38,137 bases of DNA from Zygnema cylindricum (lineage: Eukaryota; Streptophyta; Zygnematophyceae; Zygnematales; Zygnemataceae): the NCBI GenBank assembly GCA_037447655.1, contig JBBHKE010002619.1, forward strand, positions 122,790 through 160,926, read 5' to 3'. Positions within the stretch are counted from its first letter, which is position 1. Each line of letters opens with the position of its first letter. Below, piece after piece: positions 1,965 to 30,100 of this stretch. A model generated the notes under the pieces. It searched no databases and was not told the DNA's origin. It saw only the letters and a program-made list of their open reading frames with translations. A program made the translations under genes and the position numbers.

Positions 1965-3201
1965 TTACAATACAGACAAATTTGCCTTTGCTGGGCCGTT
2001 TATAAGTCGACCAAAGGAGTCAAACTGGGATCCGTGGCAAGGGCAGTCGAAAGTAGAATCCATTGGATTCCACTTCACAATGCACTTCAAATGGGGACAC
2101 ACAGCTGTATACAAAAAAAAAATAACATGTCAAAAAAAGATGAAAGACGAAAAACAAAATATAAAACATAAACAACAAACGATAATCAATAAACGATAAA
2201 AGAACAAAACAAAAGCAAAAGCAAAAGTTGTTTGGTAAAGTATTAAGGTGTTATAAAACAATTTGAAAGGCTAGATGTGGTTACCCGATACCATACTGTG
2301 GTACGGAATACCATCCGTTCCGTACGTGAGAACCACTTATAGTGTTTCCAACTGTTTTTGTACATTTGAGATAGGATACGACTCCTATGACCCCCGAGTT
2401 ATTATTCTCTAATACAAATGATTATTGTTATTTAACTCATCGCTATATTGATCAAGATTTCAACTTTCATCTCCATAATCCTTTATTATTCTCTCATGCA
2501 TATGATGCTATACTTTCCATTTTCACCTCTGTAAGCGGCATTTTTTTCTTTCATGATTTCCTTATAAAATACTATTATTATCATTTAACTCACCACTATA
2601 TTGATGAAGGTTTCCATTTTTGTCTCTGTACGCGGCAATTTTTTTAAGTCCTTTTTGTACCACGGCACCACATTTTGGAGCCAAATCTTCGATGTCGACA
2701 GTATCGACTCCAGCTAATGGGACATTGTCCTTTAAACCCTGAGATTAAAACAAGAAAAAACAATCTTTTCAATATGGGAAAAATAGTTTTAATATGAGAA
2801 AAATAAGCTTTTCAATACGAGGAAAACAAGCTTTTTGATGTGAAAAAAACAATCTTTTCAATATGAAAAAAATAAGCTTTTTGATATAAGAAAAAACAGG
2901 ATTTTCAATACGAGAAAAACAAGCTTGTCGAAAAGAGAAAAACAGAAATTTCAATTCGAAAAAAAAAACTCATTGCAATATGATAAAAAACACGCTTTGC
3001 AATGAGGATTCCACCCCTTCTTCTTCTTCTTCTTTTTCTTCTTTTTCTATTTGACATTATTTAACTACGGTTTATGCTCCTTTTCTCCCCTCTGTTTCCA
3101 ATCCAAAAAAAACAAAATGCCTTGCTTTGAATACACAATGTAATCTGTTAAATTAGTGTCTATACGAAAAAATAGATGTGACTTTAGCCATAGCTGTTAT
3201 A

Positions 3202-3244
<43 letters not shown>

Positions 3245-3246
3245 AG

Positions 3247-3288
<42 letters not shown>

Positions 3289-6200
3289 GAAACAAAATAA
3301 AGTAGAATGTAGTGAAATATAACAGAATAAAAGATAAAATCCGATAAAACCTATATAGTGTGGACAGCTTCTGTCATCTTTTCTTTGAGAGTGGACATAG
3401 AGGAATGAGGGACTCTAGCGGGAGTATAAACATTCGCCCATCGAATAAAGTAAAATAAAACATAACAAAATATAATATTACAAAATAAAAGATAAAATCA
3501 AACCTGTATAGTGTGGACAACTTCTGTCAACTGATCTTGGAGAGTGGATTTAGAGGGAGGAGGGACTCTAGAGAGAGTACATATATCCATCCATGAAAAA
3601 TGAAAACAAAATAAAGTAAATAAAATATTACAAAATAAAAGATAAAATGAGATAAAGCCTATATAGTGTGGACAGCTTCTGTCAACTGTCCTTGGAGAGT
3701 GAACTTAAAAGGGAGGAGGGACTCCAGAGGGAGTATAAATATGCACCCATATATAATGAAAACAAAATAAACTAAAACAGAATAAAATAAAACACAAAAA
3801 GATATTACAAAATGAAAATAAAACGAAACAAACCTGTGTGGTGTGGACAGCTTCTGTCAACTGTCCTTGGAGAGTGGACATAGAGGGAGGAGGGACTCTA
3901 GAGGGACTATAAATATCCGCCCATGGATTTTTTTTCTCCATAATAAGGTCAGTAATGAGTATTCCTGCAATTGTACTTCCTGTCATTCCCTGGCCACTAT
4001 CACCTGCAATTGCCATAACAGAGAACATTACAGTATTAAAAATTTATAATTTCTTTAAATCATAAAGTAATTTTACCTTTTCTTTTTTTGCTTCACAGCT
4101 TAAACATTCCTTTCTTAAAAGATCATCGTTAAATTTCACTAATTGGATACATGACCATGATGATGATGATGATGATGATGCTTTAAGTAAACCGTAACAA
4201 GAAAGAAATTTACGTGGAAGAGAATTGTCTAGTATATAAGGCTTCGAGTAGTCCATAACAAAAAAGAAATTTCTTTGGAAAATAAGTGTTTAGTATGTAA
4301 GGCTTCGAGTGGATCAATACCAGTTGCAATGTATACATTGGACTTGGTTGGGCCTGGATCACGCCCATATAGGCCCAAGAAGTCAGTGGGCTTATATACC
4401 TGAGAAACCAGCATGGAAATAGACATTATGTTTTGTGTCAGTTCAAGAGAAAAAAGATTTACGACTTCACGTTTAACATTAAGAATTTTGACTTTAAGCA
4501 ATTAACATTGGACATTTAACGTTGAACAGTTGACATTCAACATTGGAAATTTTAGTATTGAACATATTAACATGGATCGCTTAAAATTGGACATTCAAAT
4601 ATTGAAATAGTATACATTAAGTATTAGACATTTGAAACGAAACCTTTGGCGTTGAGACATTGATTGTTGAACACTGAACCTTAAACAGTTCTAGATCTAC
4701 CATTTAAACGTAAACAAGAGTTGTACTAATACATTTGTAAGCTATTGAAAGTAGCGGCAGACGAAAACCTCATTTGAGCATCTAAGTACAGAAAAATTTG
4801 CTTCTCTGACAATTATATTTCGTTTTCTTATATAAAATATCCTTCAAGCTATGAAAGAATGAAAGCAAATTTTTGACATACACCCTTTCAATTATTATTT
4901 TTTTCCCCACAACACTATACTGCAAATGGATATCAACAGCTAAAAGATAAAAGAAAATCACAATCTTATTCTGCCCCGAGAATACCATGTGACTTTTTTT
5001 CGAACGAAATAACTGAAGAAGCTCATAATTATACAAAATCTTTCAGAAACTTACCATTCCTCTCCATTTGCAGTTCAAAAATATACATAATGTTACAACA
5101 ACTTACCATTCCACTCCATAGCAGTTCATAATTACACATAAATGTTACAAAAATTTAGCATTCCACTAGATTTGCAGTTAATAATTTTACAGAATCTTAC
5201 AGAAACTTAGCCGTCGACTCCATTTGCATAATGTTACAAAATGTTAACATTACACTCCATTTACAGTTCATTATTACACAATGGTATAAAATCTTACCAT
5301 CCACTCCATTTGCAGGTCATAATTATACATAAATGTTACAAAAACTTACCATTCCACTCCATTTGTAAATTATCTCTCCTGCCGCAGGCCATCGAGGTCT
5401 TGCCCAGTCTTCCAGTTTTTTGAAGGCGTCAGGATATTGTCCAGGAAGTATTCCTACAGGGTGGTCTTCTCCTCCCACAATGAGGACATCATAATCTTCC
5501 TTTTCTTCCACTCGAATATAGTGGTAAGGTGACGCAGTGTCCCACCAATTAGCCCTCCTGCAAAATGAAAGAAACTGTCGATAAATAAGGAGTTTCATAG
5601 TTGTTTTTAGCATTCACAAGATGAAGATTAGATCGGTAATCATAGAATCCAGGAAACTGAAGGAATTAAAAAGAAGAAAAGTGGACATGATACTCCAAAA
5701 GCTTTTTGTCTTGGATACACCTTGAATCGTTATTAGCTTTTATGGTTTTTTCGCGATTTAAATCAACTTTTTTCCTTGCACACGTCTCCAATTTTCATTT
5801 GACGACCCAAATCGAAAGGTAATAATCTTGCTTTCCTATCGAAACCGTCATATTAATAATCCCACAAGTATACTAAAAAAAAGAAAGAGTTACAAAAAAA
5901 CACATTAATACTTATACAAGGTGTAGATGCAATACAAGCTGTAGTTAACAGGATTTTAAGATGGTAAAAAATATTTTCTACTCTGATGTAATAGAAAATG
6001 TCCAAATAAAGAACTAGGGATTAGAACTCACTTGATATCACCACGATTCACTTTGAAGCCAGCAACATAGGATCGCTCCGGTTTTTGTCTCGCATGAACA
6101 AGTACATTATGATGAATAGGAGAGTTTGTTGCAAGTACAACTGCAGAAGCTGAAACTTGACCAATTCCATCTGCTGTAGTAACTGTCGTTCCGTCCAATT

Positions 6201-6402
6201 TATAAACAGGACTATCTTCATAAATCTTCCCTCCTCTCTTAACAAATGCTTGGGCAAGTCCATTTAGATACCTGCAAAAAACCGTAAAAAAAGCAGAAAA
6301 AAAACCACATTTGCATCAATAAGGCCACAACAGACATTTTTCTTGCTTCCACATAAAATATCAGAATTTATTTTAACTGATGGTAACAAAACTAGATAAA
6401 GG

Positions 6403-6449
<47 letters not shown>

Positions 6450-9400
6450 TTCAGCATTGTATTTTAAGAAAACGAAAAAACACAATGCTATATTCTTAGT
6501 TTTAACGCATCGTTGACTTTGGAAAAAAACTAAAAAAAGGGAGTTCCAAAAAACAAAGTTTGCTTTTCTTACAAGAGAGGGTGAAATTCTCCAGAATCTG
6601 GGAATCTGATTGCTTGGTTTATGCTCCCCCATGCTGGATCTCCACCGAGGTCAACCACCGAAATATTCTTAAACCCCGCTCGTTTACTAGCGTCAAATTC
6701 CTGTTTTACAAAATTTAAAGTTAATTGGATTTCTGTTAGCATTTGCAATGTGCGGAATCAATGTCAATGTCAATGTCAGTTCGTATCTACAGTAGTGTGT
6801 TTAAGTTTGGTAGCGCGTCACGCCGCGCATTTTGTTTTATTTTGTCGTTGGTACTTTTTCGTCTCTTTCTCTTTTTTTTTTACGTTTCTCTTTCTGCGAG
6901 TTAAGATTTCTGTACAGTCTGAGTGAAGTGCTAGCAAGATTTAATCCGATTTATTAGCTCTATCTTAAATCTCAATGAAGTGTTAATTTTTTTTAACAAA
7001 TTTGCTAATTCTGTGCACAAAATGTATAGCTTAAATATTTTTGATTCAATGAAGTAAATGAAAGCTATAGGATAATAGCTGAAAGTCCAACTGGCCGATG
7101 AGGTCTCAAATACACTACCAAAAAAGGGGCTTAACATGTTATTCAATCACGTGGAAACTTTTGATGACTATGAAAAGTTTCCATTACCGCTTCCATAAAC
7201 AGAAAGCTTATTCGACAAAAACATTGGTGTTGATAGTGGTTATTGAAAAGAATTACATATAAAACATTAAAAAACATTACAAGTAATTTTTTTTTAAACC
7301 AGCACTCACCATCTGAAGCTTTTGGAGGTTGGCCTTATTGTCTTCAGTGGGAAAAAGGAATCCATCGAGTCGTCTGAAGTTACACTCAATATTTTCTTCA
7401 CGCACCACATTCTCAATCCAGTCGATAGCCTTCCTGTGACTTTCACCAACAAGAGAAGTCTTTTCTTTTCCAAAATGTTTCTCCAATTCGAAATAATAAT
7501 CATCGTTCCAAGGCATCAAGTGAGCAGTCGTCTTGCCGGTTTGTCCATGGCCTACATTTACGAAAGTAAACAGTTTTTCATAAACATTTGGGTTGAAATA
7601 CAATATAAGAGAAAAACACGTTCAAAATATTTAGATCGTAATATAGTGAAGAGCTTCGATACAAATATAATATGCTCAGACTAATCGAATGATAACTGCA
7701 TCAAGACGAATAAAAAGCTTTCTAATATCCACATCAGCAATTATTACATATTTCATAATGGTCCAAATGCAGGATTGGCACGTATTTTCTAAAGAAAAAA
7801 AAGAAAAAAAGAAAGGGGGTGATTTTAACACATTCTTTCATGAAACAGTCATAAAAGGCTTTTATTTAGCTATTCCAACCGTTGACTGCCAATGTTCCAT
7901 AAAATAGTATTCTCCAAAGAAAATAAAATGAATTGGATCCTGAGGTTAGGATGATTGTTGAAGAATTACGTGACGGCTAATTGGGATGTTGAAATTGTAG
8001 AATATTTAAAAAAGTTTAAGGGTGGCAAAAGACAGAAGATAAGGAAAAGTTTAAGAAAAAGACGAGAGAGTTTGGATTCGGATGATTTGATTATGGATCG
8101 AAAGTGCTCTTTTGGGACAAGAGTTGAAAACAGAAATACCTATACATTTTTTTTAGAGAACCACCAAAAAATTCCCTGCTTTGACCAATTTGTAAGCGAT
8201 TTTGGAGCCCTTTAAAAGCCCTTTTTATACAAGAGTAAAAAGTGATAAAGAAGTGACAAATACCTATGCATTTTGATTCAAGAAGTACCACTGACTTCCC
8301 TGCTTTAATCAAATTGTAAGCGATACTGATCCCGGCTATACCGCCTCCGACTACGACGACATCTGCTGTAATTTCCTCTTCAAGTTTGGGATATTGGATT
8401 CGGAGGTCCTGCTGGTCCCATACTGTAGGGCGGAGGCCGGGAGTCTTCTCTGCAAACTGAAATCCAGCTTCGTTGCTGATCTGCTCGGAAGGCGTCACCC
8501 TATGGATACACAAAACCAGCAGTAAAAGGTAAACGAAGGTGAGATTCTCAAGAAAATGAAAGTGAAGACGAAGATGAAGTTGTAAATGAAAATGGGATTT
8601 TTGTTAGGACAATGGAAATGAAAATGAAATTCGTCACGAAAATGAGAATGAAAATGAAAATAAGAATAAAAATGAAGTTGAGAATGAAATTTCTGAAGAG
8701 AACAGATGTCATAACGTCAGGTCACGTCACATTATCAGGTTGCGTCAGGTTGCCAGGCGACGTGCTATAGGTACTCGAAACCATATAAGGAATATCACAC
8801 AAGGATGAGATTCCCAAGAAAATGAAAGTGAAGATGAAGCTGGAAGTTAGTATGAGAATGAAAATGAAAATGAAGATGAAGTTTAAAAACCTGGTCCCCG
8901 GGAGACATGCCATCGATACATGCTTTGGATACAGAAAACCTGTGTAAAGATGAATTTTCTTAAGAATGAAAATGAAATTGATTTTTTTGTAAGAGTAAAC
9001 AAAAAAGATATTTCTCAAGGAAATGAAATATGAATGAAAATTGGAAAGAGAATGAAAATTGAATTTTTCAAGAAAATGAAATTGAAATTAAAATTTGTCA
9101 ATGATAAAACAGCATAGTCCAAAGTGAAAGTACATAAAGATGAGATTCTTAAGAAAACGAAAGCGAATATGGAGATGAAGATGCAATTGAAAATGAGAAT
9201 AAGAATGAAAAATGAAATTTATAAAAGTGCGAGAACAAAAATGGAATTTGTCAAGAAGTAATGAAAATCAAGATGATGTTTGTCAAGAAAATGAAATGGT
9301 TTTTTTTTTTTTTAAGAAAATGAAAATAAAGATTCTCAAAAAATTGAAAATGAAACTGAAATTTCGCCAAATTTTTTGATGCTGTGAAGACATTTTGTAT

Positions 9401-9784
9401 CATGCATTGCATCAGATGAGTGAGTGATTAACTGATTTCAAGCTAAAGACCATATTTTTATTTCAGTATTCACGCTATTATTTATCATTTGTAAACCCCC
9501 TTATTACTTACAACAACAAAATATCCATCACCAAAAGAAAACGCAGCAAGTGACAAGGTCCATTCGCCAAAAAAAAAAAAAAAAATTGCATTACATTGTA
9601 GAGAATTGTAATCCGTAAACTTGTTCCTTGTCTCTAAACGACTTTAATAATAGTATAAAAAATGCTGAAAAAAATAATAATGGAAAGCAAATGTCGTCTA
9701 TCACCTTGGCAAGCAGAAATTGAATGGAAAGAAGCAACGTGAGAAAGTCGTTTGTATCCTCTGAACCACAGTAGTCTCGCTCAT
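1965..9784 (-). CDS. FAD-dependent oxidoreductase with C-terminal Rieske domain, YhfW-like, mitochondrial leader likely
   Basis: Ten exons join in phase at GT-AG borders: 9784-9705, 8499-8264, 7551-7310, 6700-6573, 6271-6032, 5557-5350, 4399-4321, 4003-3834, 2738-2594, 2104-1965 (1668 nt, 555 residues, TAA stop). The DAO-type flavin fold shows VVVVGGGIAG at about 74-83, the ribose-binding Glu 101 after VVLL, GHGQTGKTTAHL from 106, and the late flavin motif GDSGQGMTGSTIAG at 405-418. A Rieske [2Fe-2S] site follows: C512-P-H514 and C530-P-C-H533. This order matches bacterial YhfW-type proteins, whose substrate is unknown; amine or amino-acid oxidation is only a family-level guess. Residues 1-27 (MSETTVVQRIQTTFSRCFF...) are Arg/Ser/Phe-rich with one acidic residue, like a mitochondrial presequence; exon 1 was chosen because its phase fits exon 2 exactly. 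Several introns carry tandem copies of the neighbouring exon junctions. The gene is divergent from eIF2A. Confidence 0.9.
2399..2600. repeat. partial tandem copies of the exon 9 3' junction (oxidoreductase intron 9)
   Basis: The real exon 9 end (plus-strand motif TTTAACTCACCACTATATTG at about 2584) is echoed at about 2435 as TTTAACTCATCGCTATATTG. The exon segment read as TCTCTGTACGCGGCAATTTT (from about 2624) recurs at about 2527 as CCTCTGTAAGCGGCATTTTT. The flank TTATTATTCTCT appears at about 2399 and 2485. There are therefore two or three decayed copies of the exon tail and donor region inside the intron. Confidence 0.75.
3203..3287. repeat. poly(A) tracts in oxidoreductase intron 9
   Basis: Two long A runs separated by CAGGGTT. 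On the gene's strand they are poly(T), inside the intron between exons 9 and 8. The length is likely unstable and may be assembly-limited. Confidence 0.9.
3348..3930. repeat. four-copy tandem array of the exon 8 tail and donor (oxidoreductase)
   Basis: The exon 8 tail (about 3834-3930, encoding WADIYSPSRVPPPS...LTEAVHTTQ on the minus strand) is repeated at about 3658-3750, 3503-3590 and 3348-3440, each followed by similar AAAATAAAA-rich sequence; spacing is about 155-178 bp. The shared core on the plus strand is GTGTGGACAGCTTCTGTCA then GAGAGTGGACAT and GGAGGGACTCTAGAG. Copy 2 has an in-frame stop and a shift. Copy 3 keeps an open frame (RVPPPSKSTLQDQLTEVVHTIQ-like) and a GT donor. Copy 4 ends in a stop. 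Confidence 0.92.
4120..4320. repeat. tandem duplication next to the exon 7 donor, plus a TGA trinucleotide run
   Basis: A unit of about 60 bp (AACAAGAAAGAAATTT ... TAAGGCTTCGAGT) occurs at about 4196-4250 and 4256-4313. The second copy abuts the exon 7 donor at 4320/4319, and the phrase CTTTAAGTAAACCGTAACAAG before it suggests a third decayed unit. An imperfect (TGA)n run lies at about 4158-4181. Confidence 0.7.
4470..4690. repeat. ACATTGAACATT-type minisatellite, intron 6
   Basis: Short degenerate units such as AACATTGGACATT, GAACAGTTGACATTC and ATTGAACATATTAACAT recur for about 200 bp just before exon 7 of the oxidoreductase (minus-strand sense). No coding frame is seen. Confidence 0.7.
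5044..5365. repeat. splice-donor ladder: about seven tandem copies of the exon 6 end
   Basis: The real exon 6 terminus and donor (plus strand CTTACCATTCCACTCCATTTG at about 5345, read on the minus strand as GGAGTGGAATG then GTAAG) is repeated with about 40-50 bp spacing near 5051, 5101, 5152, 5204, 5243 and 5293. Copies near 5051, 5101 and 5293 keep GGTAAG exactly; 5152, 5204 and 5243 have lost it. Spacers share TTCATAATTACACATAAATGTTACAAAA. This is intron 6 of the oxidoreductase gene. Confidence 0.92.
6411..6446. repeat. (TA)n microsatellite, intron 4
   Basis: An uninterrupted AT dinucleotide run in the oxidoreductase intron between exons 4 and 5. Confidence 0.95.
8530..9380. repeat. GAAAATGAAAATGAAG array with copies of the exon 2 acceptor region (intron 1)
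   Basis: The phrase GATGAGATTC(T/C)(C/T)AAGAAAATGAAAGTGAAGATGAAG recurs at about 8540, 8803 and 9137, embedded in AATGAAAATGA repeats. Between units, sequences like the real acceptor and exon start recur: on the minus strand, GTATCCATAG then GGTGACGCC is real (8510-8491), GTATCCAAAGCATG lies at about 8932-8919, and GTACCTATAGCACGTCGCC lies at about 8775-8757. These look like decayed duplicates of the exon 2 acceptor. Confidence 0.7.
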
Positions 9785-9790
9785 TTTATA
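9784..9790 (-). promoter_or_regulatory. TATAAAA motif at the oxidoreductase start codon
   Basis: On the minus strand TATAAAATGAGC places a TATA-like box directly overlapping the ATG used for exon 1. If it acted as a TATA box, transcription would start inside or after the codon, so either it is not used or the true start lies elsewhere. The phase match of exon 1 to exon 2 still favours this ATG. Confidence 0.3.
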
Positions 9791-13596: not shown

Positions 13597-16500
13597 ATGG
13601 CGGTATCTGGGGCTCCTCCAGCACCCAAGGTTCTTGGTTAGTGCCTTCTCCTTCTTGATAGCCCTAAATTTGTGTAATGAAATTTTAACAAATTGTGGTT
13701 TTTCTTATCCAAAAATCTGAAATAGTAGTTATGAAAAGATGACAGCAACAATCACTGTTATTTTCAAATGCATATGCGTTGTTATATGTAAAATTTGAAA
13801 TTGGGGACTTAGAAATAAGGCTACTTTGTATCTCCTGATAGCTGAACAGTTTTTGGGTTTAATTACCGTTTTTTTATGTGCATTGGGGAGAAAAAAAAAA
13901 AAAGCAAAATGCTTTTTACAAATTTCTTCATGAAATTCTCAACTTGTCATCTACCATACAAACATTTAATAACCGCCATTACCTGTAGTTGTCAGTTATT
14001 TAGTTAATTTAGTTTTCGTTTCCTTATTCTTCTTTTGTTTTTGAGATCAGTTCGGGAACGCGAGGGACTTTCGTTATTTTCTTATCCTTCTGGTGACGAA
14101 ACTCTTTCGAGGTACTGCTTTCCCTTTTATCGAGATGTCTTGTTAATCAATTCTATTTTTCATCATGAGTCTTTGCCCTTTTTTATGTTATCGGAATTAA
14201 AAGTAGCACAAGAAGTATGGATTTTTCCATCAATTCTGTGCAGTTTCAGTTCAGTTTTTAGTTTTCTGCTTTTATTTTCCAGCCATAATCTGTGGGATGT
14301 GTCTGAAGGGCAGAAAAAGATGATTTATTTTATGTGTTTAATTCGAATTTTACTGAAGTAGAATGTGATGCTATTAAAGTTTAAACTAGAAATAAAATTT
14401 GAATTGAAAAATTAGAACATGGCCATGATTTTTCAGAATTAAAAAGATATAATTTGTGGGTACGAAATTTGCATTGCTGAGATATCACAAAAGGTTTTTT
14501 TTTTTTTTGTGGTCCTCATCTAATAAAGGGAAACCGGAGATAACTTGACTGTGTAAAATACTTGTAGTTTAAATTATGGAAATGATCACCTGGTCCAGTG
14601 TAATAAATACCAAGAAGACATTTGCATTTTCTCCTGCTTCGTATCATCCCTTTCCCTCTCCCTCTCCCTCCCTCTCCCTCTCCAAAAAAAAAATTTATCG
14701 ACTGATCCGATCTGATCGATTTGATCCGGATCCATTTTGGGGTTTTGCAGAGTCCCGTGTTCGTCTGCTTCTTTCAGCTCGGATGGGAATTTTTTGTCTC
14801 TCACTACCCCGGAGGATATTACTGTGGTCGATTCGAATACAGGAAAAGAAATCCTTAAATTGCCTCTGAAAGGTGTTATGGCAGTTTCTTTCTCCCCAAA
14901 AAATACATTTCTACAAGTTTTTCAAAAACCAACTGGACAAGATAAGAACCTGACGGTGAGGCGGGTCGAAGGGGGAGAAGTGGTTCTCCAACAGTTTCAG
15001 AAAACGTTCGCGAAGACTGCCTGGTTAGTGAAGTTCAACATTCAGGACTCACGGTTTCTTTCCTCCGGTTGATATATTGTACTATATGTGTAGTATGTAT
15101 ATATATATATTATAAATGTATAGTTTGTATGTCAGAATGTCAGTTGCATGGAAAACCTTCGTTGTTTAGGTGCATCTCTACACACCGTATCGCTGTCAGA
15201 GTTGAATTTTCCCTGAAAACATTTATCTCCTCCGTTTTGTCGATTCTCGCTAAACTAAAGAAAACCTCTTCTGGTCGTCCGTTCTTGATTTTTCGAGCAA
15301 TCGGTCGCCTGGGATGGTCGAGTTCACCGAAGAACTCAGAGTCAGATGGCCATGGTTCCCCTCACATAGTTGCATCAGGCATGATCCTCATCTCTTTATC
15401 TTTCTCCTCTCTCTTCTCTCTCTCTCCCTTTTCCTCCCTTCTTCTCCAAATCCTGTCGAACCCCGATAAACTGATTTGTTGATCGGATGATCGAGATCCG
15501 ACACAATGTCTCTGAGGAGAAAATAAATAAATAAATAGATAAATAAGAGGAAAAAAAATGCACAGAATGCTCTCTCTATTTCGTTTTTCTGTATCTCTTC
15601 ACTTCTGTTTTGGTGGCAAATTTTCCTTAAAAGATGTTATTTTTGTCAAAAAAAAAGTTTTTCTTCTGTCCCTTTCTCACACATTCTCCTTATATTTGTA
15701 GTCTCTCAACTTTTTTTTTTTCCTTCACCTAAGTTCTATCCAATCCGGTCAGTTTTCATCAAGTTTGACTTATCTCGACAAGGCTTCCTTGGCTCCCTAA
15801 AGACCATAATAATTCTATTAACCAATTGAATACATATTATATGATTATTATTATAATTATTATTATTGAATACCATACCTGAGAAAATCAAATTCCTAAT
15901 TAATGTCAAGTCAACATTGCCCTCTCTGCCTCTCCCTCCCTCTCCCCTCTCCCTCTCTACCTCTCATTTATGAAGTTCTATGGTAGTTTCTCCAATTGCT
16001 TCTCAACCTTACATCATACGGTTTTAAACTTAAAAACTTCATTAAGCCAGTCGAAGCCCTTCTTGGAGAAAATTGAGAAATTTTTAGCAAGCTTACTATC
16101 AATGAGAAACGGTAAAAAACAAGAAGTCTGTCCATTTGTTAATTTTTTTTTTTTTTTCCAGGGAGCTCCTGCAAGTATTCGAATTTTTCGAAGACCGGTT
16201 AGTCCAGATTCACAGCCTACTGCGAGGAGAAGTTTTTATAAAGCGACAACTGTAAGACTTTTTTGGAACAAAGGGTCGACTGGAGTTTTGGCTTTAGCAC
16301 ATTCTGATGTGGATAAGACAAACCAGAGTTATTATGGGGAAACTACACTTCATTTCTTGACTTGCGACGCATCATTTGAGGGAACTGTTCCGTTAAGTGA
16401 GTTATTTTCTTCAATTTTTTGCATCAATGAGTTCGTGTGTCTGTGTGTTTTTCTTTTTTTCTTTCTTCTTTTTTCTTTGTTCTTTGTTCGTTTTTCAGTT

Positions 16501-19500
16501 TATGCGTTAAACGCTCTATTGCTTTGTCTTACTTCGTTGTTTTCTGTCTTATTTTTCCGTCTTAATTGTCTTTCTTTGCGTCGTCACTTTTTGGTCGTAC
16601 TTTAATTATTGCTCTTTGTCCTTTTTTTTAGTCTTACGTTGTGAACTACTATTTTATGTTTTTGTTCCTTTACCTTGTTCCTTTTCCTCTTGCTTTTTGT
16701 CTTACCGACTCCTTTTTTTTTACATGTATATATATATTGTATATATATGTATAATATTTTTTGTTTGCAGGCAAGGAGGGCCCTATTCATGATGTGCAAT
16801 GGTCTTCTTCTGGAAAAGAATTTTTGGTGGTCCATGGCTGTATCTATAAGAAGAAAGAAATAATTTTCTGGGTTTCCATGTAAATTCTATACATTTCAGT
16901 CGATTTCAACAGGGGCAACTTTTTGTCTCTACTTGAAAGTTATTTTTTATTTTTTATGTTATTTTTGAGAGAGATTTTCTTATGGTTGCTAGAGGATTTC
17001 AAAAAAAAAAAAAACAACTTACAGACAAGATACAAGATCACTTTAAGTTTCTAAGATCTATGTCCAATTTAAATTCAAATTTGAAGGGAAAACCTAAAAA
17101 ACTTGAAGGAGGATGTCAAGAAAAAAGCTGGAAGAGATACAAGATACAACATTACACTCAATTTTTGAGAAGTTCAGGTCCAATTTGAAGTCATTTTTAA
17201 GGAAAAACCTAAAAGATTGAAGGAAAAACCTTCAAAATTGGAGAAAAACCTAGAAGATTGAAGGAAAACCTTCAAAATTGACGAAAAACCTTTAAAATTG
17301 AAGAAAAACCTTTGAAAGTGAAGAAAACCCTTCAAAATTACCTTAACTCACTCTTCAGATATGCCTTCCAAGGCGACTTTGTTTGACTCAAAATGTCGAC
17401 CACTGTTTGACTTTGGCTCGGGACCTCGGAATTTAGTCAGATGGAGCCCTTACGACCGCTGTATCCTTTCACATTTCTCACATTCCTCATGTTTTTCACT
17501 TTTCTCAAATTTCTTACCTTTCCCATGTTTCTCTCTCCCTCTCGCTCTCCCTCTCCCTCTCTCTCTCCCTTTTCTTCTCCCTCTCCCTCTCACGACCGCT
17601 GTATCTTTCACATTTCTCACGTTCCTCATGTTTTTCATACTTCTCAAATTTCTTATGTTTCTCGTGTTTCCCTCTCCCTCTCACGACCGTTATATCTTTT
17701 CACATTTCTCACATTTCTCATGTTTCTCATGGTCCACACGTTTCCCGTGGTGCTGACATGTCTCACGTTTTTCAAATTTCTTATGTTTCGCGTGTTTCTC
17801 CATTTCTCAAATTTCTCATGTTTCTCACATTTCTTACATTCTTTCCTACCCTTTGGAAAGGTAGAACCACTCTAGTTTAGGTTGTAATGTTGTAAGAGTT
17901 TTTTTTTCTCCCTTTATTTTTTCAAGTTTGTTGAGAGATTCACGCATAAAATGTGATATGGGCAGTTTTTTGGAAACCTGTAATAGTGGGATAGCTTGTT
18001 TTCAATGTCCTTGTTTGTGCCGAGTCATCCATTTTAATTTTGGAAAATTGCATATTTAAATCATGGTCCCATCAGTTTGGGAAAACCTTATCGATTTGTA
18101 TTTCAGTTCATTAGGAAATCCTTTTTCATTTGTATTAAAACTTTCTTATTTTGTCCTTCAGTTTTATTAGTGTTTTCTTTGACAGTCACTGCCTTACAGA
18201 TATGTGTCTCGCGGGATTTGGAAATTTGCCCGGGGATGTTGTGAGTTAATTTTATCCATGGAAACCCAACGATTTTTTTTTTTTTATTTATATATATAGA
18301 TAGACACACAGTTTATGACGAGTTTGTTTCTCTGGAAACTTGACACTTGTTTGTGATTTTTAATGTAATGAGTTTTTTTGAAACCGATTTGTCTCGCATG
18401 GAAACGTAACATCTTCTCAATGGTGGAAATGAAGTTTCTAAAATTGGTTACGGTGGTCGCACAAGTTGCTTTTTAATTGGCCACAAACACATATTCAAAA
18501 GCTCAAAAGCGTCCATTTATTATTTGTACATTGCTGGCATCAATGGGCAACTTCATTTGTCTTTTTCTATTTTTGTCTTTTGTGGAAACAGGAGTTTTAG
18601 GAAACACAAACCGCATATCGCTGATGCCTTTGTCTTTTTCTGTGTTAGTCCTTTTCTGTTTTTTTGTCCTTTTTTTTATTTTGCCCTTTTTTTATTTTGC
18701 CCTTTTTTATTTTTGTCCTTGCTTACCTTTGTTGTTTTCTCTTTTTGTCGTTTCCAATTTTCGTTTTTTTTCTCTTTTTGTCACTCTGTCCGAAAAACAG
18801 TTATATTTTTGTCTTTTTCTATCTTTGCGACAAACAGTTTTTTTTTTCGTTTTCTATTTTTGCAACAACAAGTTCTCTGTTTTTGTCTGTTTCTATTTTT
18901 TGCAATAACCTTTTCTATTGTTGTCGTTTTCTATTTTTGCGACAATAATTATGCTTTCGTCTTTTTTCTATTTTTTGAGACCAAACAAACAGTTCTGTTG
19001 TTTTCGTTTTCTCTTGTTGTCGTTTTCTATTGTTGTCGGTTGCAGGAGTTCTGGGAGAGGTCGAGTCTGAAGTGTGTGGGGAAGACGAGGGCACCCATGG
19101 GAGTCAGTCTCGAGTGGTCCCCCACCGGGCAAGAAGTCCTCGTTTCTACAACGGCTCCAAGACTACAAGTAGATAATGGGTGAGAAATGTTTGCGGGTAT
19201 AAAGAAAAAAAAGGTATAAAGTTTAAGTTTTAATATCATAGGAATGAGTTTCGAGTGGTCCCCCACCGGGCACAAAGTCTTTGTATCAACCACGGCTCCG
19301 AGGCTACAAGTCGATAATGGGTGAGATTTTTTTACGGGTCTTTAGGGTTTTTTGGGGTTTGGGTATAAAGAAAATAGGGGTATGAAGAATAGTTTCAATA
19401 CCAGAGGAACGAGTGTGGAGTGGTCGAGATGTTGGTGGCAACCACGGCTCCGAGATTATAGAAATATGGTGGATATAATGAATGAAAGAGGTATGAAAAG

Positions 19501-21337
19501 TATATAGAGTCGTAGGTATAAAAGGAGGGTGTGGGTGGCAACCTCGGCCCCGAGACTACAAGTTGGTAACGTGTGAGAAATATGATGGGTATAAAGAGTA
19601 AAAGGAGTATAACAAGTCGATAACGAGTGAGAAAGATGGGTACAAAGAAAATAATTAAAAATATGGCAAATTAAGTGTGTGCTTTTCTGGAGTAGCTGAA
19701 TTTTTTTGGGACATAAAAGGCGGTTTAACGTTATCTTCGTTTGAGACTGTTGGATTCAACAAATCCAATGGACTAAGATTTGCATAACTCAAATAGAAAT
19801 GCCAAATATCCCGTACGATTTTAGATACAATAGAAACAGTAATATTGATGTGTCCTTACTTTTACACCCTTAAGTTCAAATAAAATTTCTTGAAAAAAAA
19901 AATCTTATCGTCCGTTTGTCGGTTTTTGTCAAATTGATATCGACACAGGTTAAGATGATGAGGCCAGAATATAACCGAATGTAACTGAAAATAACTGAAT
20001 ATTGTATATAATTGCATGTAACTGAATATAACTGAATATAACTGCCTATACTGAGTCTAACCGAATATAATCAAATATAACTGAGTTAAGTTTGCTTATT
20101 TTAGGAATAGGAGGGGGCAGGATACTGAGGCTGGAGTTGACTTCATCATTTTGAAAACATGCATTGTGTTAAAATTTGATTATAACTGAATATAACCAAA
20201 TATAACCGATATAACTAAATATGACTGAATATAACTGAATATAATCGAATATAATCGAATAGAGTTCAATTGAGTTTGCTTATTTGAGGAATAGAGAGGA
20301 TGGGTCAGAATGAGATTACGTAATGGTTCTGAAAACATGAGGTGGGCACGGTGACCTCTCATACTATATGGGTATAGTATGGGTGTTTTCCCAGAGCTTT
20401 TTTTCAGGGTTTCTTACGGTTTTAAGCTTTTTTTTAGGGTTTTTTAGCGTTTGTCACATACCATGAATAGTATGACCACATTTTCGGTTTTGTTTTAATT
20501 GCTCGTTGCCACACGTTTTGTAAACCCACACATACAAGTTGTGCTTTAAAGAGAAATAGGTGTTAGGAGAAATGGGTATAAAGAGAAATGGGTGTACAGA
20601 GAACGGGTATATGGAGAAATGGGTATAAAGAGAAACGGGTATAAAGAGAATAGGAGAAATGGGTATAAAGAGAAAAGAGAGGTTTTGGAGGAATCTAAGG
20701 AAATACCTGGAGATGATCGACATTTTTTCCCTCAAAAGTCAAAACAGTGTTAATGAAAATGGTTTTTTGTGACCTGTGGGATATTTCAGTATTCGAGTTT
20801 TTGCTCCGGACGGTACCTTGGTGTACCAGAAATCATATGCCATGCTATTTCAGGTAAGAATTTGCCTCCCTTTATGCATCTTTATGCCTTTCAAATATGA
20901 ATATAACTGAGTTTAACGGAATTCAACTGAATATAACTGAGTATGAGTATAACTGAGAAAAACTTCAACTGAATACAACTGAATAAAACTGATGTAACTG
21001 CATCTGACTGAATAAAAGTGGATATAACTGAGTGTAACTGAATCCAACTGAATCTAACTGAATATATTATTCACAAATTTGTCTTTCGATCAACTCAACT
21101 CTTATTTGTTTCGACTTCCTCCTATAAAACATTGTCTGTTTCATTTCTATTATTTGCCGTTTTCTTTATTTTTTTTTATTTTTTTCTATAACTATAGGCT
21201 GATTGGAGGCCCTCTCCCGAGGACTTGTATCCCGATAAACCCTTTGTCCCCTCAAAATCTCCTCCGGTTTTGTCTTCTTCTGGAGCCGAGAGTTCTTCCA
21301 AACAAGCTAATGCGACAGGTAAATGGTTTACCCCTTT

Positions 21338-21392
<55 letters not shown>

Positions 21393-24300
21393 AAGAGAGA
21401 GGCGAAAGCAGAGGCAAAGAGGGATAGGTAGAGAGAGAGGCAGAGGCAGAGAGAGGTGTAGGCTGAGAGAGATAGGCAGAGGCGGAAAGAGAGGCTGAGG
21501 GAGAGGCAGAGGGAGAGGGAGAGGCAGAGAGAGGCATAGGCATAGAGATAGAGACAGAGAGAGAGGCATAGAAAGGGGCATAGGCATAGAGAGAGGCAAA
21601 AAGTGGGGCAGAGTCGAAGAGAGGGAGATTCGGAGACAGAGGGTTAATGTGTCGAATCTCTATCTGTGACAATAAAGCTTTTAAAATCTAATAACATTTC
21701 CACATCTTTTCTATGCATAAATTTATTTTACTGATAGATAATTTGGGCACTTTTTTTTGCTCCTTTTTGTGGAAAAAATATCTCGTACTATGTGGCATAA
21801 ACCAAAACCTTTATCGTGAAAGTTGTCCTTCATATTCAATAAACATAAATTGTCAAAGAGTTATTTTAAAGAGTATACATAAAAAAAAAACCCATAAATA
21901 TACCCAAAGGGTCTTTATATACACATTAAAAAAAACTCATAAAAAACCCAAAATGTTTTATATACATCAAAACAAAAAACGTTAATAAACCCAAAAAGTC
22001 TTTATATACATCAAAACAAAAAACTCATAATAAACTCGAAAAACATGTCCAATTGACCCACGAAAAGCGACCTAATTTTAATATTTTTTTAATTTGAGAC
22101 TCATTATAATTTATTATCTAAAGCAACATTTCCAAAATACTTTCTTTCTCCTCCTCTGTTTCCCTTTATTCTTTACATTTTTTTTCTTTTGGTTAGGTCC
22201 AAAAGTGGCTCCTTTGAAAGCCTCTCCCTCTCCCTCTCCCTCTCCGGCTCCGGCTCCGGCCTATCGACCTCCGGGAGCTCGAGGGAGTGACGTGTCATCA
22301 GCTTTTCGTGCTCAGGTGAGGAAAAGATTATGTCTTATTTTTCTTTTATATGTTTTTTTTATTTTCTTCGTTTTTTTGGTATGTTTTTAGGTATTGACTT
22401 CCGTTTGTTTCAAAGTTGCAGATTTTTGTGTTTTCTCAGACAATTTTTGGCGACTTTTGACATTTTTAACGTTTTCTGACATTTTTCATCATTTTCAACA
22501 TGCTTTTGGCACGTTTTACTATTTTTTTGACATTTTTTTGACATTTTTTTACTTAAGTTTTTTTTTACATCTTTTTACAACTTTTGACGTATTTTTTGCC
22601 CGTTTTCTCACTTTTTCATTTCTTTTAAAAAAAAAAATCTTGCTTCTTTCAACATTTTAATCTAGCATTTTTTGACATGTTTTTGAGATTTCTCCCTTTT
22701 TTTTATATTTTTGATTGGGGGCAGTTATCGGGCGAGAAAGACAAGCCAAAAGTTATTGGAGAAGCCTCAAAATTGTATGTAAAAATCCTATTTTTCTCTT
22801 TTGGGTACATAGGGGTAAAAGGCAATATTGGATACTAGGGGATTATGCCTCAAAATTGTAATTAAAATCTTATTTTTTCCCTTTTTTATGGTATAAAAGG
22901 GGGGAAAGAAATTATTGGCTACTAGAGCATTATTCCTCAAAAATGTATGTTAAAATCCTTTCTACTTTGGGTACACAAAAGGGGTAAATTTTCTACTACG
23001 GATTACGCCTTCAAATCGTATATAAAAATCAGTTTTTTTCAATTTTTTGGGTATAAAAGAGGTAAAGGGATTCATTGACTCCTAGGGATTATGACTCAAG
23101 ATTGTCTATATAACTCCATTTTTATTATGGGTACAAAAGGGGGAAAACGAATTATTGGGTACTAGGGATTATGCCTCAAAATTGTTGTGAAACTCCTTTT
23201 TTATTTAGGGTACAAAAGGGGTGGAAGATGTAATTGGGTAGTAGCAATTATCATCTTATTTTGACTTTAACTAAATAAGTTAACAATTTCTTCTAAATTC
23301 AAAAATGTTGAGTATTGTATATTGGTTTTTTTCTATTTTTTCAAAAAATTGGGGTTTGTTATGTAAATAACGAGAAATCAACGATAAAATAAAGATCTCT
23401 AAAAGGAAAAATATGAAATTTCAAAAAAAGACGACAAAAATAGAGATGATTTTTTTTAACTCTCTCTCTCTCTCTATCTCTCTCTCTCTTCTCCCTCTCT
23501 CCCTCTCACCCCTCTCTCCCTCTCTTCCCTCCCTCTCTCCCTCCCTCCCTCCCTCCCTCCCTCCCTCCCTCCCTCCCTCCCCTCCCTCCCTCCCTCCCCC
23601 CCTCCCTTCCCCCCCTTCCTCCCTCCCTCCCTCCCTCCCCCTCCCCCCCCCAATCCCTCCCCCCCTCCCCACCCTCCCCTTCCCCCCCCCCCTCCCTCCC
23701 TCCCTCCCGTTTTCTGGTGGTTTTTTGTTATTTTTACAATATAGAAATGTTCCGGTGAGAAAAAGTTCAAAATTCCTCTCTCCTCGTTCTATCTGACTCT
23801 CTTCCTCTCTCCCTCTCATCCTTATTCCCTCTCTCTCTCTCCCCCTCCCCTCCTCCCACTTCCCCCTTTTTTTTATTTTGACGATATAGAAATGTTCCGG
23901 AGAGCAAGAGTGCGGCAAAAAACAAAAAAAGACGAGAAAAAGAGAAGCAAAAAAAGGAGGAAAATGGAGAAGACAAGGAGACGGTAGGTTCGGGGGGGGT
24001 GGGGGGGGAGAGAGAAACTGAAAGAGAGACGGAAATAGAGGTAAGGGGAGAGGGAGAGGGAAAGGCGAAGAAACGGGTTTGAAAAATTCAAGTAGGCGGT
24101 GGGTTTGTGGGGAGAAAGAGAGGAGAGAGTGAAGGAGAGGGAGAGGGAAAGTGGCAGGCAACCCTTTATTTTTTCTTTTTTTTTTCCTTTTTTTTGTTTT
24201 TTTCTTCTCCCTTTTTCTTTTTTCCCTTTTGGTACTGCAGTTAGTAATTTTGGGTAATTTTGTCTGTGGTTTCATATTTGTAAATTACTTCTTTTTGTTT

Positions 24301-25329
24301 TGCTTTACTTCAACTTTTTTTTCCTTCTTTTTTTCTTTCTTTCTTTTTTAGAAAGCAGTTCTGAAAATGTCGAGTCTCTCCAAATTCCCTTGTCAAGTGG
24401 AGGACCTCAAGAAGAAGGTAAGTGAAAAAACGACAATTTTTTTTTGTCTTTATTCACTACGGTTTGTCTTTAATTGAGGAAAAAGAAAAAGGTTAACATT
24501 TAAAGATTATGGGGAGTGAGAAAGTGACAAAAACTTTTTGACTGTTCTCACTACTGTTTGTCTTTTTTCTGAGGAAAAAGGTAAAGGGTGAAACTTAAAA
24601 TTTAAGGTCGGGGAGAAAAGACGAAAGTTTTTTGTCTTTATTCACTACTTTTTGTCGTTATTTCCGGAAAAAGAAAAAGAGTGAAACCTAAAGTGTAAGT
24701 TGAGTGAAAAAAAAAAACTTAATCATAGTACAAATTTAGGAAACAAAAAGAAAAAAGGAAAATTTGAAAACTTACGATTGTATGTATTTTGTATTTTTTA
24801 TTAGGTTTTTTAGTTTTAGTCTCTTCTTTGTCTTGTAGGAATTCTTTTATCCATTTTTTGGTGTTTTTTTTTCCAGTTTTATTAATTCTTACCAAAACTT
24901 TTATTTGGAGTTGATACCATTTGTTCAAAAGTTGTTCAAAATATGTTCAAAATATTCTCAAAAAATGTTTTTGAATATGCTTTTAACATATTTTCAAAAT
25001 ATGCTCAAAAATTATGAAAATATGCTTGAAATATGCTTAAAACTTCTTTCAAAATATTATGTTTTACCATACACTCAAAATATGCAAAAAATTATGCGTA
25101 AACATGTTTAAAATATGCTTAAATGTTTGGAGTTTTTTTTTTTTTTTAAGGGGAAGGTGGAGGAGATGTCGCGAAAAAAATACGAGCTTTGGGCAAAAAG
25201 CTAAGGCAAATAGAGGAGTTAAAAAAGAAGGGGGAGGACGGAGGGAACTTGACCGAGGAACAAAAAGAAAAATTAAAGCAGGAAAATCAATTAAGGAAAG
25301 AGTTGGCAACTTTAGAAGGCCGTGGGTAA
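13597..25329 (+). CDS. EIF2A: eukaryotic translation initiation factor 2A (eIF2A), multi-exon
   Basis: Exons supported by phase and homology: 13597-13636, 14051-14111, 14751 to 15023 or 15067, 16162-16396, 16771-16839, 17359-17460, 18200-18240, 19046-19179, 20790-20853, 21198-21318, 22197-22315, 22725-22774, 23890-23987, 24352-24417, 25151-25329 (TAA). Another exon or exons must lie between 15.02 and 16.16 kb; 15170 to about 15378 is one open frame (CISTHRIAVR ... GSPHIVAS) with eIF2A-like words. The total should be near 600 residues, close to animal eIF2A. Family signatures are LVREREGLSLF, SFSPKNTFLQVFQKP, GAPASIRIF, VDKTNQSYYGE, MPSKATLFDSKCRPLFDFG, LAGFGNLPGDV, WSPTG..VLVSTTAPRLQVDNG (beta-propeller), then AYRPPGAR and a basic C-terminal coiled region KKIRALGKKLRQIEELKKK. 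eIF2A is a WD-type protein that binds initiator Met-tRNA and the 40S subunit in non-canonical initiation. The exon 14 donor (GTTCGG at 23988) is weak but needed for phase. Many introns hold junction repeats. Confidence 0.92.
16985..17345. repeat. intron repeats before eIF2A exon 7
   Basis: A unit with AGATACAAGAT...TCCAATTTGAAG...GGAAAAACCTAAAAGATTGAAGG appears twice (about 16985-17110 and 17130-17225). It is followed by a 20-38 bp minisatellite of GAAAAACCTTCAAAATTGA words up to about 17340, just before the exon 7 acceptor. Confidence 0.8.
17451..17730. repeat. tandem copies of the eIF2A exon 7 donor junction
   Basis: The real junction reads ACGACCGCT then GTATCC (donor at 17461). ACGACCGCTGTATC recurs exactly at about 17592-17605 with a GT donor at 17601, and as ACGACCGTTATATC at about 17683-17696 with the GT shifted and lost. 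Each is followed by TTTCACATTTCTCAC(A/G)TTCCTCATGTTTTTCA-like sequence and a CTCTCCCTCTC tract. Confidence 0.92.
18650..19040. repeat. T-rich repeats before eIF2A exon 9
   Basis: Units of TTTTTGTC and GTTTTCTATTTTTGCGACAA recur up to the real acceptor, which itself ends TTTCTATTGTTGTCGGTTGCAG. The units thus resemble the polypyrimidine-acceptor sequence of exon 9. The long Phe-rich open frames here are intronic artefacts. Confidence 0.65.
19096..19645. repeat. tandem duplication of the 3' half of eIF2A exon 9, two strong plus three decayed copies
   Basis: Exon 9's second half and donor (19096-19190) are copied 141 bp downstream (about 19237-19330), retaining GAGTGGTCCCCCACCGGGCA, CTACAAGT and GATAATGG followed by GTGAGA. 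Copy 2 stays open (MSFEWSPTGHKVFVSTTAPRL...). Further remnants are near 19405-19460 (ACCACGGCTCCGAGATTATA), 19528-19585 (CCCCGAGACTACAAGTTGG) and 19612-19640 (AAGTCGATAACGAGTGAGAAA). All carry a GGTATAAAG-type tail. Confidence 0.93.
19960..20350. repeat. AACTGAATAT minisatellite with a larger duplicated unit, eIF2A intron 9
   Basis: Degenerate ATAACTGAATATAACCGAAT units are interspersed with a larger repeat: GAGTTTGCTTATTT at about 20086 and 20272, each followed by GGAATAG(A/G)... and ending in TGAAAACATG, with about 185 bp spacing. Confidence 0.85.
20545..20690. repeat. GAGAAATGGGTATAAA minisatellite, eIF2A intron 9
   Basis: About 16-17 bp units of GAGAAATGGGTATAAA. The words match the sequence after the exon 9 donors upstream (GTGAGAAATG ... 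GGGTATAAAGA), suggesting that this array also descends from that junction. Confidence 0.8.
20890..21066. repeat. AACTGAATATAACTGA minisatellite, eIF2A intron 10
   Basis: The same unit family as in intron 9 (ATATAACTGA, AATCCAACTGAATCTAACTG), but located in the next intron, on the other side of the 64-bp exon 10. Confidence 0.85.
21340..21640. repeat. (GA)n tract and purine-rich satellite, eIF2A intron 11
   Basis: A clean GA run (about 21342-21391) grades into GAGGCAGAGG / GAGAGGCATAGG units. The reading frames found here on both strands are repeat artefacts. Confidence 0.95.
22740..23260. repeat. tandem array of the eIF2A exon 13 donor junction, six to seven units
   Basis: The real exon end GAAGCCTCAAAATT then GTATGT (donor 22775) starts an array of about 75-90 bp units. 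Each reads roughly TTATTGG(N)TACTAGGGATTATGCCTCAAAATTGTATGTAAAAATCC, then a T run and GGGTACAAAAGGGG. Later copies centre near 22850, 22940, 23010, 23095, 23175 and a truncated one at 23240. The unit near 23175 retains GCCTCAAAATTGT exactly. Confidence 0.93.
23461..23708. repeat. CT / CCCT polypyrimidine tract, eIF2A intron 13
   Basis: (CT)n passing into (CCCT)n and C runs, about 250 bp. It lies directly upstream of the duplicated exon 14 acceptor and can act as an oversized polypyrimidine tract. Open frames of 98-284 codons on the minus strand here are artefacts. Confidence 0.95.
23716..23912. repeat. duplicated acceptor and first bases of eIF2A exon 14
   Basis: The real acceptor is ATTTTGACGATATAG then AAATGTTCCGGAGAGCAAGAG (exon from 23890). 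A copy at about 23733-23765 reads ATTTTTACAATATAGAAATGTTCCGGTGAGAAAAAGT, and CT-rich sequence follows each. In the copy, AG and GGTGAG bracket a 10-nt AAATGTTCCG, forming a potential cryptic micro-exon. Confidence 0.9.
23978..24165. repeat. decayed duplicate of the eIF2A exon 14 donor region
   Basis: The donor neighbourhood GACGGTAGGTTCGGGGGGGG followed by GAGAGAGAAACTGAAAG and GGAGAGGGAGAGGGAAAGG is echoed about 110 bp later as GGCGGTGGGTTTGTGGGGAG, GAAAGAGAGGAGAGAGTGAAG, then GGAGAGGGAGAGGGAAAGTGG. Confidence 0.65.
24410..24720. repeat. tandem units starting at the eIF2A exon 15 donor
   Basis: From AAGAAG then GTAAGTG (donor 24418), units of about 95 bp repeat with GAGGAAAAAG(A/G)TAAAGGGTGAAACTTAAA, GTGAGAAAA, then TTTTTGTCTTTATTCACTACTGTTTGTC. 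There are about four copies to 24720. A donor-like AAGGTAAAGG persists in one unit near 24578. Confidence 0.75.
24930..25125. repeat. CAAAATATGCT minisatellite, eIF2A intron 15
   Basis: Degenerate units of TTCAAAATATGCTCAAAAATT / GAAAATATGCTTAAA just upstream of the last exon's T tract and acceptor (25150). Confidence 0.85.
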
Positions 25330-26469: not shown

Positions 26470-26511
26470 AAAGCGATCATTTTTCTTTACCCTCTCCCCC
26501 TTTCTTCCCCA

Positions 26512-29763: not shown

Positions 29764-30100
29764 TCGGCTGTTGCGGCTATGGATCGTCGTCGGGTTCCGG
29801 AACTCCCTCAACGTGCTCCCCCGGGATGGGGGGACTTACGGGGTTGCTTTTCGTAGTTATTTAATTGGGTTGGGGTTGGGGTTGTAGTTTTGGCTTTGTC
29901 AATTGTCGTGCTTTTCATTTTGAGTTTGGGTGCTTTTATTTTCCTTGTTGTTGTTTTCTTTTTGTTTTTGTTGTGCTGTTATTTTATTCCCCTGCTGGTA
30001 GTTTTTCAGTTTCGGCCATGCCACCCCTTTTGTACCCCCGGACTCAGATGGTTTACCATCGTGCTTTTTAATATATCCTGCGGTAGAAAAAATAATTATT
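29764..30100 (+). other. retrotransposon 3' UTR
   Basis: A T/G-rich tail after the polyprotein stop continues the element's composition until about 30070-30100, where GTAGAAAAAATAATTATTG marks the return to AT-rich host sequence. Short open frames here have no support. Confidence 0.5.

What the first reader, a model, noticed from the sequence alone, without database searches (positions are those of the whole stretch)
1965..25329. Recurrent tandem amplification of exon-intron junctions in two unrelated genes
In at least ten introns of two convergent-origin-free, unrelated genes (oxidoreductase minus strand, eIF2A plus strand), the repeat inside the intron is a copy of the adjacent junction: exon tail or head plus the splice site plus intron flank. 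Unit lengths differ (about 50 to 180 bp) and sequences are unrelated between introns, so this is not one mobile repeat family. A local process seems to duplicate segments spanning exon borders, with the outermost copies decaying. It would lengthen introns, provide decoy splice sites, and could seed new exons or introns. I know of tandem-duplication models for intron gain but of no described genome where junctions are this regularly laddered.
Basis: partly seen in the sequence, partly recalled or inferred. Interest (0 to 1): 0.9.

Follow-up and report, generated by a model that had tools for sequence, protein, structure and literature searches.

The report
Intron duplications spilling over exon borders
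In this green alga, a relative of land plants, introns are crowded with old local duplications that often run across exon borders and leave copies of exon ends and splice sites inside the intron, but the borders themselves do not appear to be targeted.

Summary
In homology-based models of both genes (22 introns), 7 donor junctions have clear copies (exon tail, splice site, intron head) in their own intron; an eighth is low-complexity; one acceptor is copied. Equal matches to non-adjacent introns: 4 of 924. Copies are 57-90% identical, none scored inverted, and for five junctions the copied exon end is conserved in homologs, so the exon is the source. A third gene on another contig shows it too: 4 of 17 donors, 4 of 18 acceptors, one doubtful.

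Introns are full of local duplications: 39% of sampled positions against 7.6% intergenic. Donors are hit no more often than intron interiors (12 of 39, 15.5 expected); acceptors less often overall (5 of 40, 14.6 expected), but not in the third gene (4 of 18, 4.8 expected).

Best reading: a junction-blind direct-duplication process in introns. A filter by splicing and selection on border-crossing copies is plausible but weakly supported. Single border-crossing duplications are known; eight searches of an open library listed nothing describing this density.

The parts
1965..8499 (-). FAD-dependent oxidoreductase/Rieske gene, nine modelled exons: 8264-8499, 7310-7551, 6573-6700, 6032-6271, 5350-5557, 4321-4399, 3834-4003, 2594-2738, 1965-2104 (N-terminal exon(s) upstream not modelled)
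   Evidence: Splice-aware alignment to homologs; translation open to the stop; Pfam DAO and Rieske; all 8 introns GT..AG
13598..25329 (+). eIF2A gene, 15 modelled exons: 13598-13636, 14051-14092, 14753-15067, 16162-16396, 16771-16839, 17359-17460, 18200-18240, 19046-19179, 20790-20853, 21198-21318, 22197-22315, 22725-22774, 23890-23987, 24352-24417, 25151-25329
   Evidence: Alignment to homologs with hand-set borders; exons 4-15 in one open frame to the stop and all 14 introns GT..AG after correction of five one-base errors
8133..8201 (-). Copy of the donor junction at 8263 (about 62 nt of exon tail plus donor and a few intron bases)
   Evidence: Score 40, 0 of 100 shuffles reach it
5023..5365 (-). 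About 52-bp ladder: six copies of exon tail (about 16 nt) plus donor plus intron head of junction 5349
   Evidence: Tandem Repeats Finder and anchored alignment, best score 67
3315..3935 (-). About 153-bp ladder: three copies (3658, 3503, 3350) of about 100 nt of exon tail plus donor plus intron head of junction 3833
   Evidence: Best score 97
2411..2485 (-). Copy of donor junction 2593; GT lost in the copy
   Evidence: Score 37, 0 of 100 shuffles
17449..17766 (+). Donor junction 17461 and two copies at 17601 and 17692 (about 10 nt of exon tail)
   Evidence: Best score 72
19120..19661 (+). Donor junction 19180 and irregular series of copies at 19321, 19469, 19573, 19627
   Evidence: Best score 67
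22763..23243 (+). Donor junction 22775 and five copies at 22858, 22945, 23018, 23104, 23184 (about 11 nt of exon tail)
   Evidence: Best score 54
23715..23764 (+). Copy of the acceptor junction whose exon starts at 23890 (copy at 23745)
   Evidence: Score 41, 0 of 100 shuffles; the only copied acceptor of 22
23976..24122 (+). Doubtful copy of donor 23988, G-rich low-complexity sequence
   Evidence: Score 31 but lost under stricter scoring and matched better by another intron (46)
4195..4310 (-). 61-bp direct repeat close to the donor at 4320, no clear exon copy
   Evidence: Tandem Repeats Finder; junction score 0
24441..24699 (+). 94-bp array close to the donor at 24418, no clear exon copy
   Evidence: Tandem Repeats Finder; junction score 17 with the old border, under 22 with the corrected one

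Best explanation
In this probably zygnematophycean alga a local duplication process makes direct, tandem or near-tandem copies of DNA segments of roughly 50-150 bp, much more often seen in introns than in intergenic DNA, and takes no notice of exon borders. SHOWN in three genes: intron-rich local repeats, direct orientation, border-crossing copies, exon as source (five junctions), no excess at borders. INFERRED: the copies arise on DNA by replication slippage or repair-linked template switching, because the units contain exon and unspliced intron in genomic order and so are not copies of mRNA. INFERRED and weakly supported: selection filters them through splicing. A duplication across a donor leaves the exon and its first donor in place and can be silent; one across an acceptor puts a second usable acceptor upstream, changes the mRNA more often and is lost more often. 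What remains is a set of decaying junction fossils and decoy splice sites in introns.
For: Local repeats (score of at least 25) cover 39% of sampled window intron positions, 7.6% of intergenic, 1.8% of shuffled introns; ACC introns 22%, 19 arbitrarily chosen 10-kb loci mean 8.8%. Donor borders are covered no more than intron interiors: 12 of 39, 15.5 expected. Acceptors over three genes: 5 of 40, 14.6 expected, P of at most that many 5e-6. Exon tails copied 7 of 22, heads 1 of 22 in the window (P 0.046); ACC whole introns tails 3 of 13, heads 0 of 13. Copied exon ends are conserved in homologs for the four oxidoreductase junctions and for 19180; 17461 is less conserved, 22775 was not examined. 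No inverted copy of 22 or more. Of 16 donor copies with GT that I listed, 13 would add at least one in-frame stop if used and the other 3 shift the frame. Outside support for the filter: a published acceptor-crossing duplication in a potato gene did change the transcript (PMC4974935, abstract and Results read).
Against: Acceptor depletion is absent when the third gene is taken with all its junctions (4 of 18, 4.8 expected); its whole introns alone are depleted (1 of 13, 4.2 expected, P 0.01), but its acceptors with one known flank are in excess (3 of 5, 0.6 expected) and two of them (exons starting at L022:7437 and L023:7788) copy exon heads. Among clear cases the donor-acceptor difference is marginal (11 of 39 against 4 of 40, P 0.048). 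Arrays also lie nearer donors within introns (12 of 22 at +20 from the donor, 5 of 22 at -20 from the acceptor, P 0.06), which a mutational polarity would explain. The intron excess is not uniform: 7 of 22 window introns have no or almost no internal repeats, intergenic 35.1-38.1 kb reaches 20%, the DNA downstream of ACC 22% and locus L007 32%; these stretches may hold unrecognised introns. No transcripts, relatives' introns or strain comparison were available.
Confidence: 0.55

Rival explanations
1. Junction-targeted amplification: something about exon borders (splice signals, composition change, R-loops at splice sites) makes them duplicate.
For: Copies do span borders in three genes, and arrays are somewhat closer to donors than to acceptors (12 of 22 against 5 of 22 at 20 nt, P 0.06).
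Against: No excess at donors over intron interiors (12 of 39, 15.5 expected) and fewer at acceptors (5 of 40, 14.6 expected).
Confidence: 0.1
2. Mutational polarity: duplications arise in or near transcribed introns with a bias to the donor side (for example through transcription-linked R-loops), and the donor-acceptor difference needs no selection.
For: Introns exceed intergenic DNA in local repeats; the donor-side bias already exists inside introns; repeats increase towards the 3' parts of both window genes (permutation P 0.0028).
Against: Exon tails are hit less than intron heads at the same distance (5 of 22 at -20 against 12 of 22 at +20), so exons are being protected; the third gene shows no donor-acceptor difference.
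Confidence: 0.2
3. Persistence, not origin: duplications happen everywhere, but intergenic DNA is overwritten by transposons while introns, pinned between exons, keep old duplications.
For: A LINE-like element occupies intergenic DNA of the window, several fetched loci carry Copia-like reading frames (recognised by eye), and copies are old (57-90% identity).
Against: The 9.8-13.6 kb intergenic stretch has no local repeat at all in 380 sampled positions, although I saw no element in it (no transposon search was run there).
Confidence: 0.3
4. Assembly artefact or chance similarity in AT-rich, low-complexity introns.
For: Some arrays are simple repeats; the match at 23988 is low-complexity.
Against: Copies differ by 10-43%, nine of nine junction matches beat 100 of 100 shuffles, and cross-intron matches are 4 of 924.
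Confidence: 0.03

Closest known systems
[quoted passage not shown] Drosophila cases PMC2891723 and review PMC3443670, passages read)
   Same: Local direct duplication of a segment containing splice-site sequence; in the potato case the unit crosses an intron-exon boundary, as here.
   Different: Those are single events that made a new intron. Here units are copied repeatedly in many introns of each gene, donors at least as often as acceptors, and no new intron was identified.
Intronic minisatellites / variable-number tandem repeats (recalled, no paper read)
   Same: Tandem units of tens to about 150 bp in several diverged copies at one locus.
   Different: Units include coding exon ends and a working splice site; several copies keep an intact donor.
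Introner elements (recalled, no paper read)
   Same: Repetitive sequence associated with many introns of one genome.
   Different: Introners are one family shared between introns; here cross-intron matches are 4 of 924 in the window and 0 of 312 in the third gene.
Tandem alternative splice sites and tandem exon duplication (recalled)
   Same: Duplicated splice sites near each other.
   Different: Copies lie about 50-480 bp apart in the intron and are mostly decayed; use in transcripts could not be tested.

Membership tests
[quoted passage not shown]
   11 clear donor (of 39) and 4 clear acceptor (of 40) junction copies in three genes; no inverted copy of 22 or more in the window
[quoted passage not shown]
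   No transcripts and no introns of relatives at hand
Introner elements | One sequence family shared by many introns | tested here: not met
   4 of 924 non-adjacent comparisons in the window and 0 of 312 in ACC reach the threshold; one 10-bp repeat is shared by two neighbouring eIF2A introns
Intronic minisatellites | Several tandem copies of units of tens of bp or more at one locus | tested here: met
   Arrays with periods 44-153 in window introns
Intronic minisatellites | Copy number varies between individuals | not testable with these tools
   One assembly only
   Donors 12 of 39, 15.5 expected; acceptors 5 of 40, 14.6 expected; three genes only

The most novel reading that the evidence does not exclude
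Introns of this alga preferentially generate local tandem duplications, more than neighbouring non-transcribed DNA, and the surviving border-crossing copies record which splice site the spliceosome picks: donor duplications are tolerated because the first donor wins, acceptor duplications are purged because the first AG wins. Genes would then carry natural splice-site-choice experiments (4 of 16 listed donor copies keep a 9-mer identical to the real donor) and a stock of decoy mini-exons, such as a 23-nt exon-tail copy in the third gene flanked by an AG and a GT.
Probability: 0.25. Interest if true: 0.7.

Novelty: new variant of a known kind. Interest (0 to 1): 0.5.

Why it matters
Tandem duplication across a splice site is one of the few proposed routes to new introns and exons and is usually known from isolated events. 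In the three genes sampled, about a quarter to a third of donor junctions have copies in their own intron. If that holds genome-wide, one species would offer hundreds or thousands of independent natural duplications. Comparing donor with acceptor crossings, and checking which copy is spliced, would make rules of splice-site choice and the first steps of exon and intron birth countable. It is also a caution for annotation: some decoys match the true donor at all nine positions compared.

Tried and rejected
One search's similarity table was invalid (self-diagonal not masked) and was replaced; only its translation check is used. Five hand-set eIF2A borders were one base off; one search corrects them and repeats the main counts, which do not change (the expected number moves from 9.71 to 9.72). 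The repeat-coverage table, the donor-offset and inverted-copy tests and the distal-donor translation were not repeated; one base should not matter there. One search masked too much (it removed real copies); donors were still flat. An acceptor at 8499, outside the 22 introns, has no copy. Chance, a shared mobile family and assembly error were rejected (see rivals). Lengthening of introns by arrays: no significant difference. Rfam at gathering thresholds: no match in the window. About 48 residues of eIF2A could not be found by tblastn. A PDB search for the middle part of acetyl-CoA carboxylase was too weak to use.

Dropped or special before counts: ACC introns with an unknown partner exon were not used whole; 4 of their donors and 5 of their acceptors were tested against one flank. 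The eIF2A stretch 15068-16161, which may hide an exon, was kept as one intron. The ACC acceptor at L023:797 (T-rich) counts in '5 of 40' but not among the 4 clear ones; the donor at window 23988 counts in '12 of 39' but not among the 11 clear ones. ACC donor at L016:8228 scored 24 and was counted as a miss.

Literature: eight searches were answered; no listed title or abstract start described recurrent junction copies in introns. Passages read: PMC2891723, PMC3443670, PMC9915684, PMC10407611, PMC11096116; abstract and Results section: PMC4974935. The library holds only openly licensed papers.
Full report
WHAT WAS CHECKED. The window is nuclear DNA of a streptophyte. The five best homologs of eIF2A share 53-62% of residues, the ten best of the oxidoreductase 56-61%; named ones among them come from mosses, a liverwort, ferns or lycophytes, Mesotaenium, Spirogloea and Closterium. 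A tree of the oxidoreductase groups it with Closterium and Mesotaenium (support 81/92, below the tool's threshold of 95/80), so a zygnematophycean alga is likely and the species unknown. Gene models came from splice-aware alignment to homologs, independently of the repeats, with several eIF2A borders set by hand. On checking, five hand-set borders were one base off; one search corrects them, shows GT..AG at all 22 introns and an open frame through eIF2A exons 4-15, and repeats the main counts.

THE OBSERVATION. For each donor and acceptor I took the best copy inside the adjacent intron that crosses the border with a score of at least 6 on each side. At a total of 25 or more, 8 of 22 donors and 1 of 22 acceptors have a copy; each of the nine exceeds 100 of 100 dinucleotide shuffles. 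The sequences show, for example, an about 52-bp ladder at 5349 with six copies of the 16-nt exon tail plus donor, an about 153-bp ladder at 3833 with about 100 nt of exon in the unit, and an irregular series at 19180. One donor (23988) is low-complexity; stricter scoring leaves 6-7 of 22 donors and the same acceptor. Matches at this level to non-adjacent introns: 4 of 924. No inverted copy reached 22.

DIRECTION AND AGE. Exon ends copied at the four oxidoreductase junctions and at 19180 are conserved in homologs (for example YKWSGM, NPWADIYSPSR, TTAPRLQVDNG), so the exon is the source; 17461 is less conserved and 22775 was not examined. Copies are 57-90% identical to the working junction: too diverged for an assembly error, and too diverged to place breakpoints. 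Identity falls outward clearly in one of five multi-copy arrays, loosely in a second, not in three. Of 16 donor copies with GT that I listed, 4 keep a 9-mer identical to the real donor; 13 would add an in-frame stop if used and the other 3 shift the frame.

IS IT ABOUT JUNCTIONS? The comparison that decides is with intron interiors. Local repeats cover 39% of sampled intron positions, 7.6% of intergenic, 9.6% of exon and 1.8% of shuffled-intron positions. If repeats fall blindly within introns, 9.7 of 22 donors should be covered; 8 are. Acceptors should be covered equally often; 1 of 22 is (P of at most that many 2e-8; 0.001-0.023 under stricter scoring). Exon tails are copied at 7 of 22 borders, heads at 1 of 22 (P 0.046). 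Tails are hit less than intron heads at equal distance (5 of 22 at -20, 12 of 22 at +20). So the window shows no junction targeting; it shows reduced spill-over at donors and almost none at acceptors.

REPLICATION. The genome search did not answer in 21 tries, but stretches of the same assembly could be fetched. Among 20 stretches of 10 kb, chosen arbitrarily, I recognised acetyl-CoA carboxylase exons by eye and fetched four neighbours. Borders were set by alignment to the yeast enzyme as printed by a PDB search and by hand further on: 13 complete introns, plus 4 donors and 5 acceptors with one known flank. Copies: 4 of 17 donors (exons ending at L016:6862, L016:9242, L022:4369, L022:7817) and 4 of 18 acceptors (exons starting at L016:6656, L022:7437, L023:7788 clear; L023:797 T-rich and doubtful). 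At L022:7884-7906 a 23-nt exon-tail copy is flanked by an AG and a GT, a ready decoy mini-exon. Cross-intron matches: 0 of 312. Repeat coverage is 22% in ACC introns, 6% in ACC exons, 3.7% upstream, but also 22% downstream; the other 19 loci average 8.8% (range 0-32%; not annotated).

ACC with all junctions gives acceptors 4 of 18 (4.8 expected); its whole introns alone 1 of 13 (4.2 expected, P 0.01); its one-flank acceptors 3 of 5 (0.6 expected), two of them with copied exon heads. Over three genes: donors 12 of 39 (15.5 expected), acceptors 5 of 40 (14.6 expected, P 5e-6). Clear cases only: 11 of 39 against 4 of 40, P 0.048.

MECHANISM. The border-crossing units contain coding exon and unspliced intron in genomic order, so the template was DNA (or, less simply, unspliced RNA), not mRNA. 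Direct orientation and tandem placement point to slippage or template switching; this is inference. The survival filter is inference with mixed support: a second donor downstream leaves the exon unchanged if the first is used, a second acceptor upstream tends to alter the message. The published potato case is an acceptor-crossing duplication that altered the message (PMC4974935, Results read). Unexplained by the filter: the low repeat content of 5' introns in both window genes (permutation P 0.0028) and the excess of repeats in introns, which may be persistence in introns and not a special source.

CHANGES AFTER CHECKING. The decoy mini-exon is 23 nt, not 24.

NOVELTY AND LIMITS. Border-crossing tandem duplication is known from single events. 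Eight searches of an openly licensed library listed no description of recurrent junction copies at this density. I call it a new variant of a known kind. Limits: three genes, no transcripts, no relatives' introns, one assembly.

Noticed in passing
window 5500-16200 against 2100-5400 and 16400-25300: Repeat-poor and repeat-rich introns form blocks: the 5' parts of both divergent genes and the DNA between them are nearly free of local repeats (except upstream of 8499), the 3' parts are rich.
   Followed up: partly
window 15068-16161: About 48 residues of the conserved eIF2A domain could not be found between two exons; possible micro-exons, strong divergence or loss.
   Followed up: partly
window 26500-29900, plus strand: LINE-like element with a reverse transcriptase reading frame (PF00078, E 1.5e-15).
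   Followed up: partly
window 19967-20084, 20177-20254, 20898-21063: A 10-bp TGAATATAAC-type repeat occurs in two neighbouring eIF2A introns, an exception to the rule that units differ between introns.
   Followed up: no
window 30558-30779 and loci L004, L006, L009, L011, L013: Related reading frames (..DLRRSHEKPITQL..) recur across the genome, suggesting a dispersed repeat family.
   Followed up: no
L022:7884-7906: Copy of an exon tail flanked by CTCTTGCAG and GTCATT: a 23-nt decoy mini-exon with both splice sites.
   Followed up: partly
L007 (G000:C20:1-10000): AT-rich stretch with a high share of local repeats (31.6%) and almost no coding signal; possibly long introns of an unrecognised gene.
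   Followed up: no
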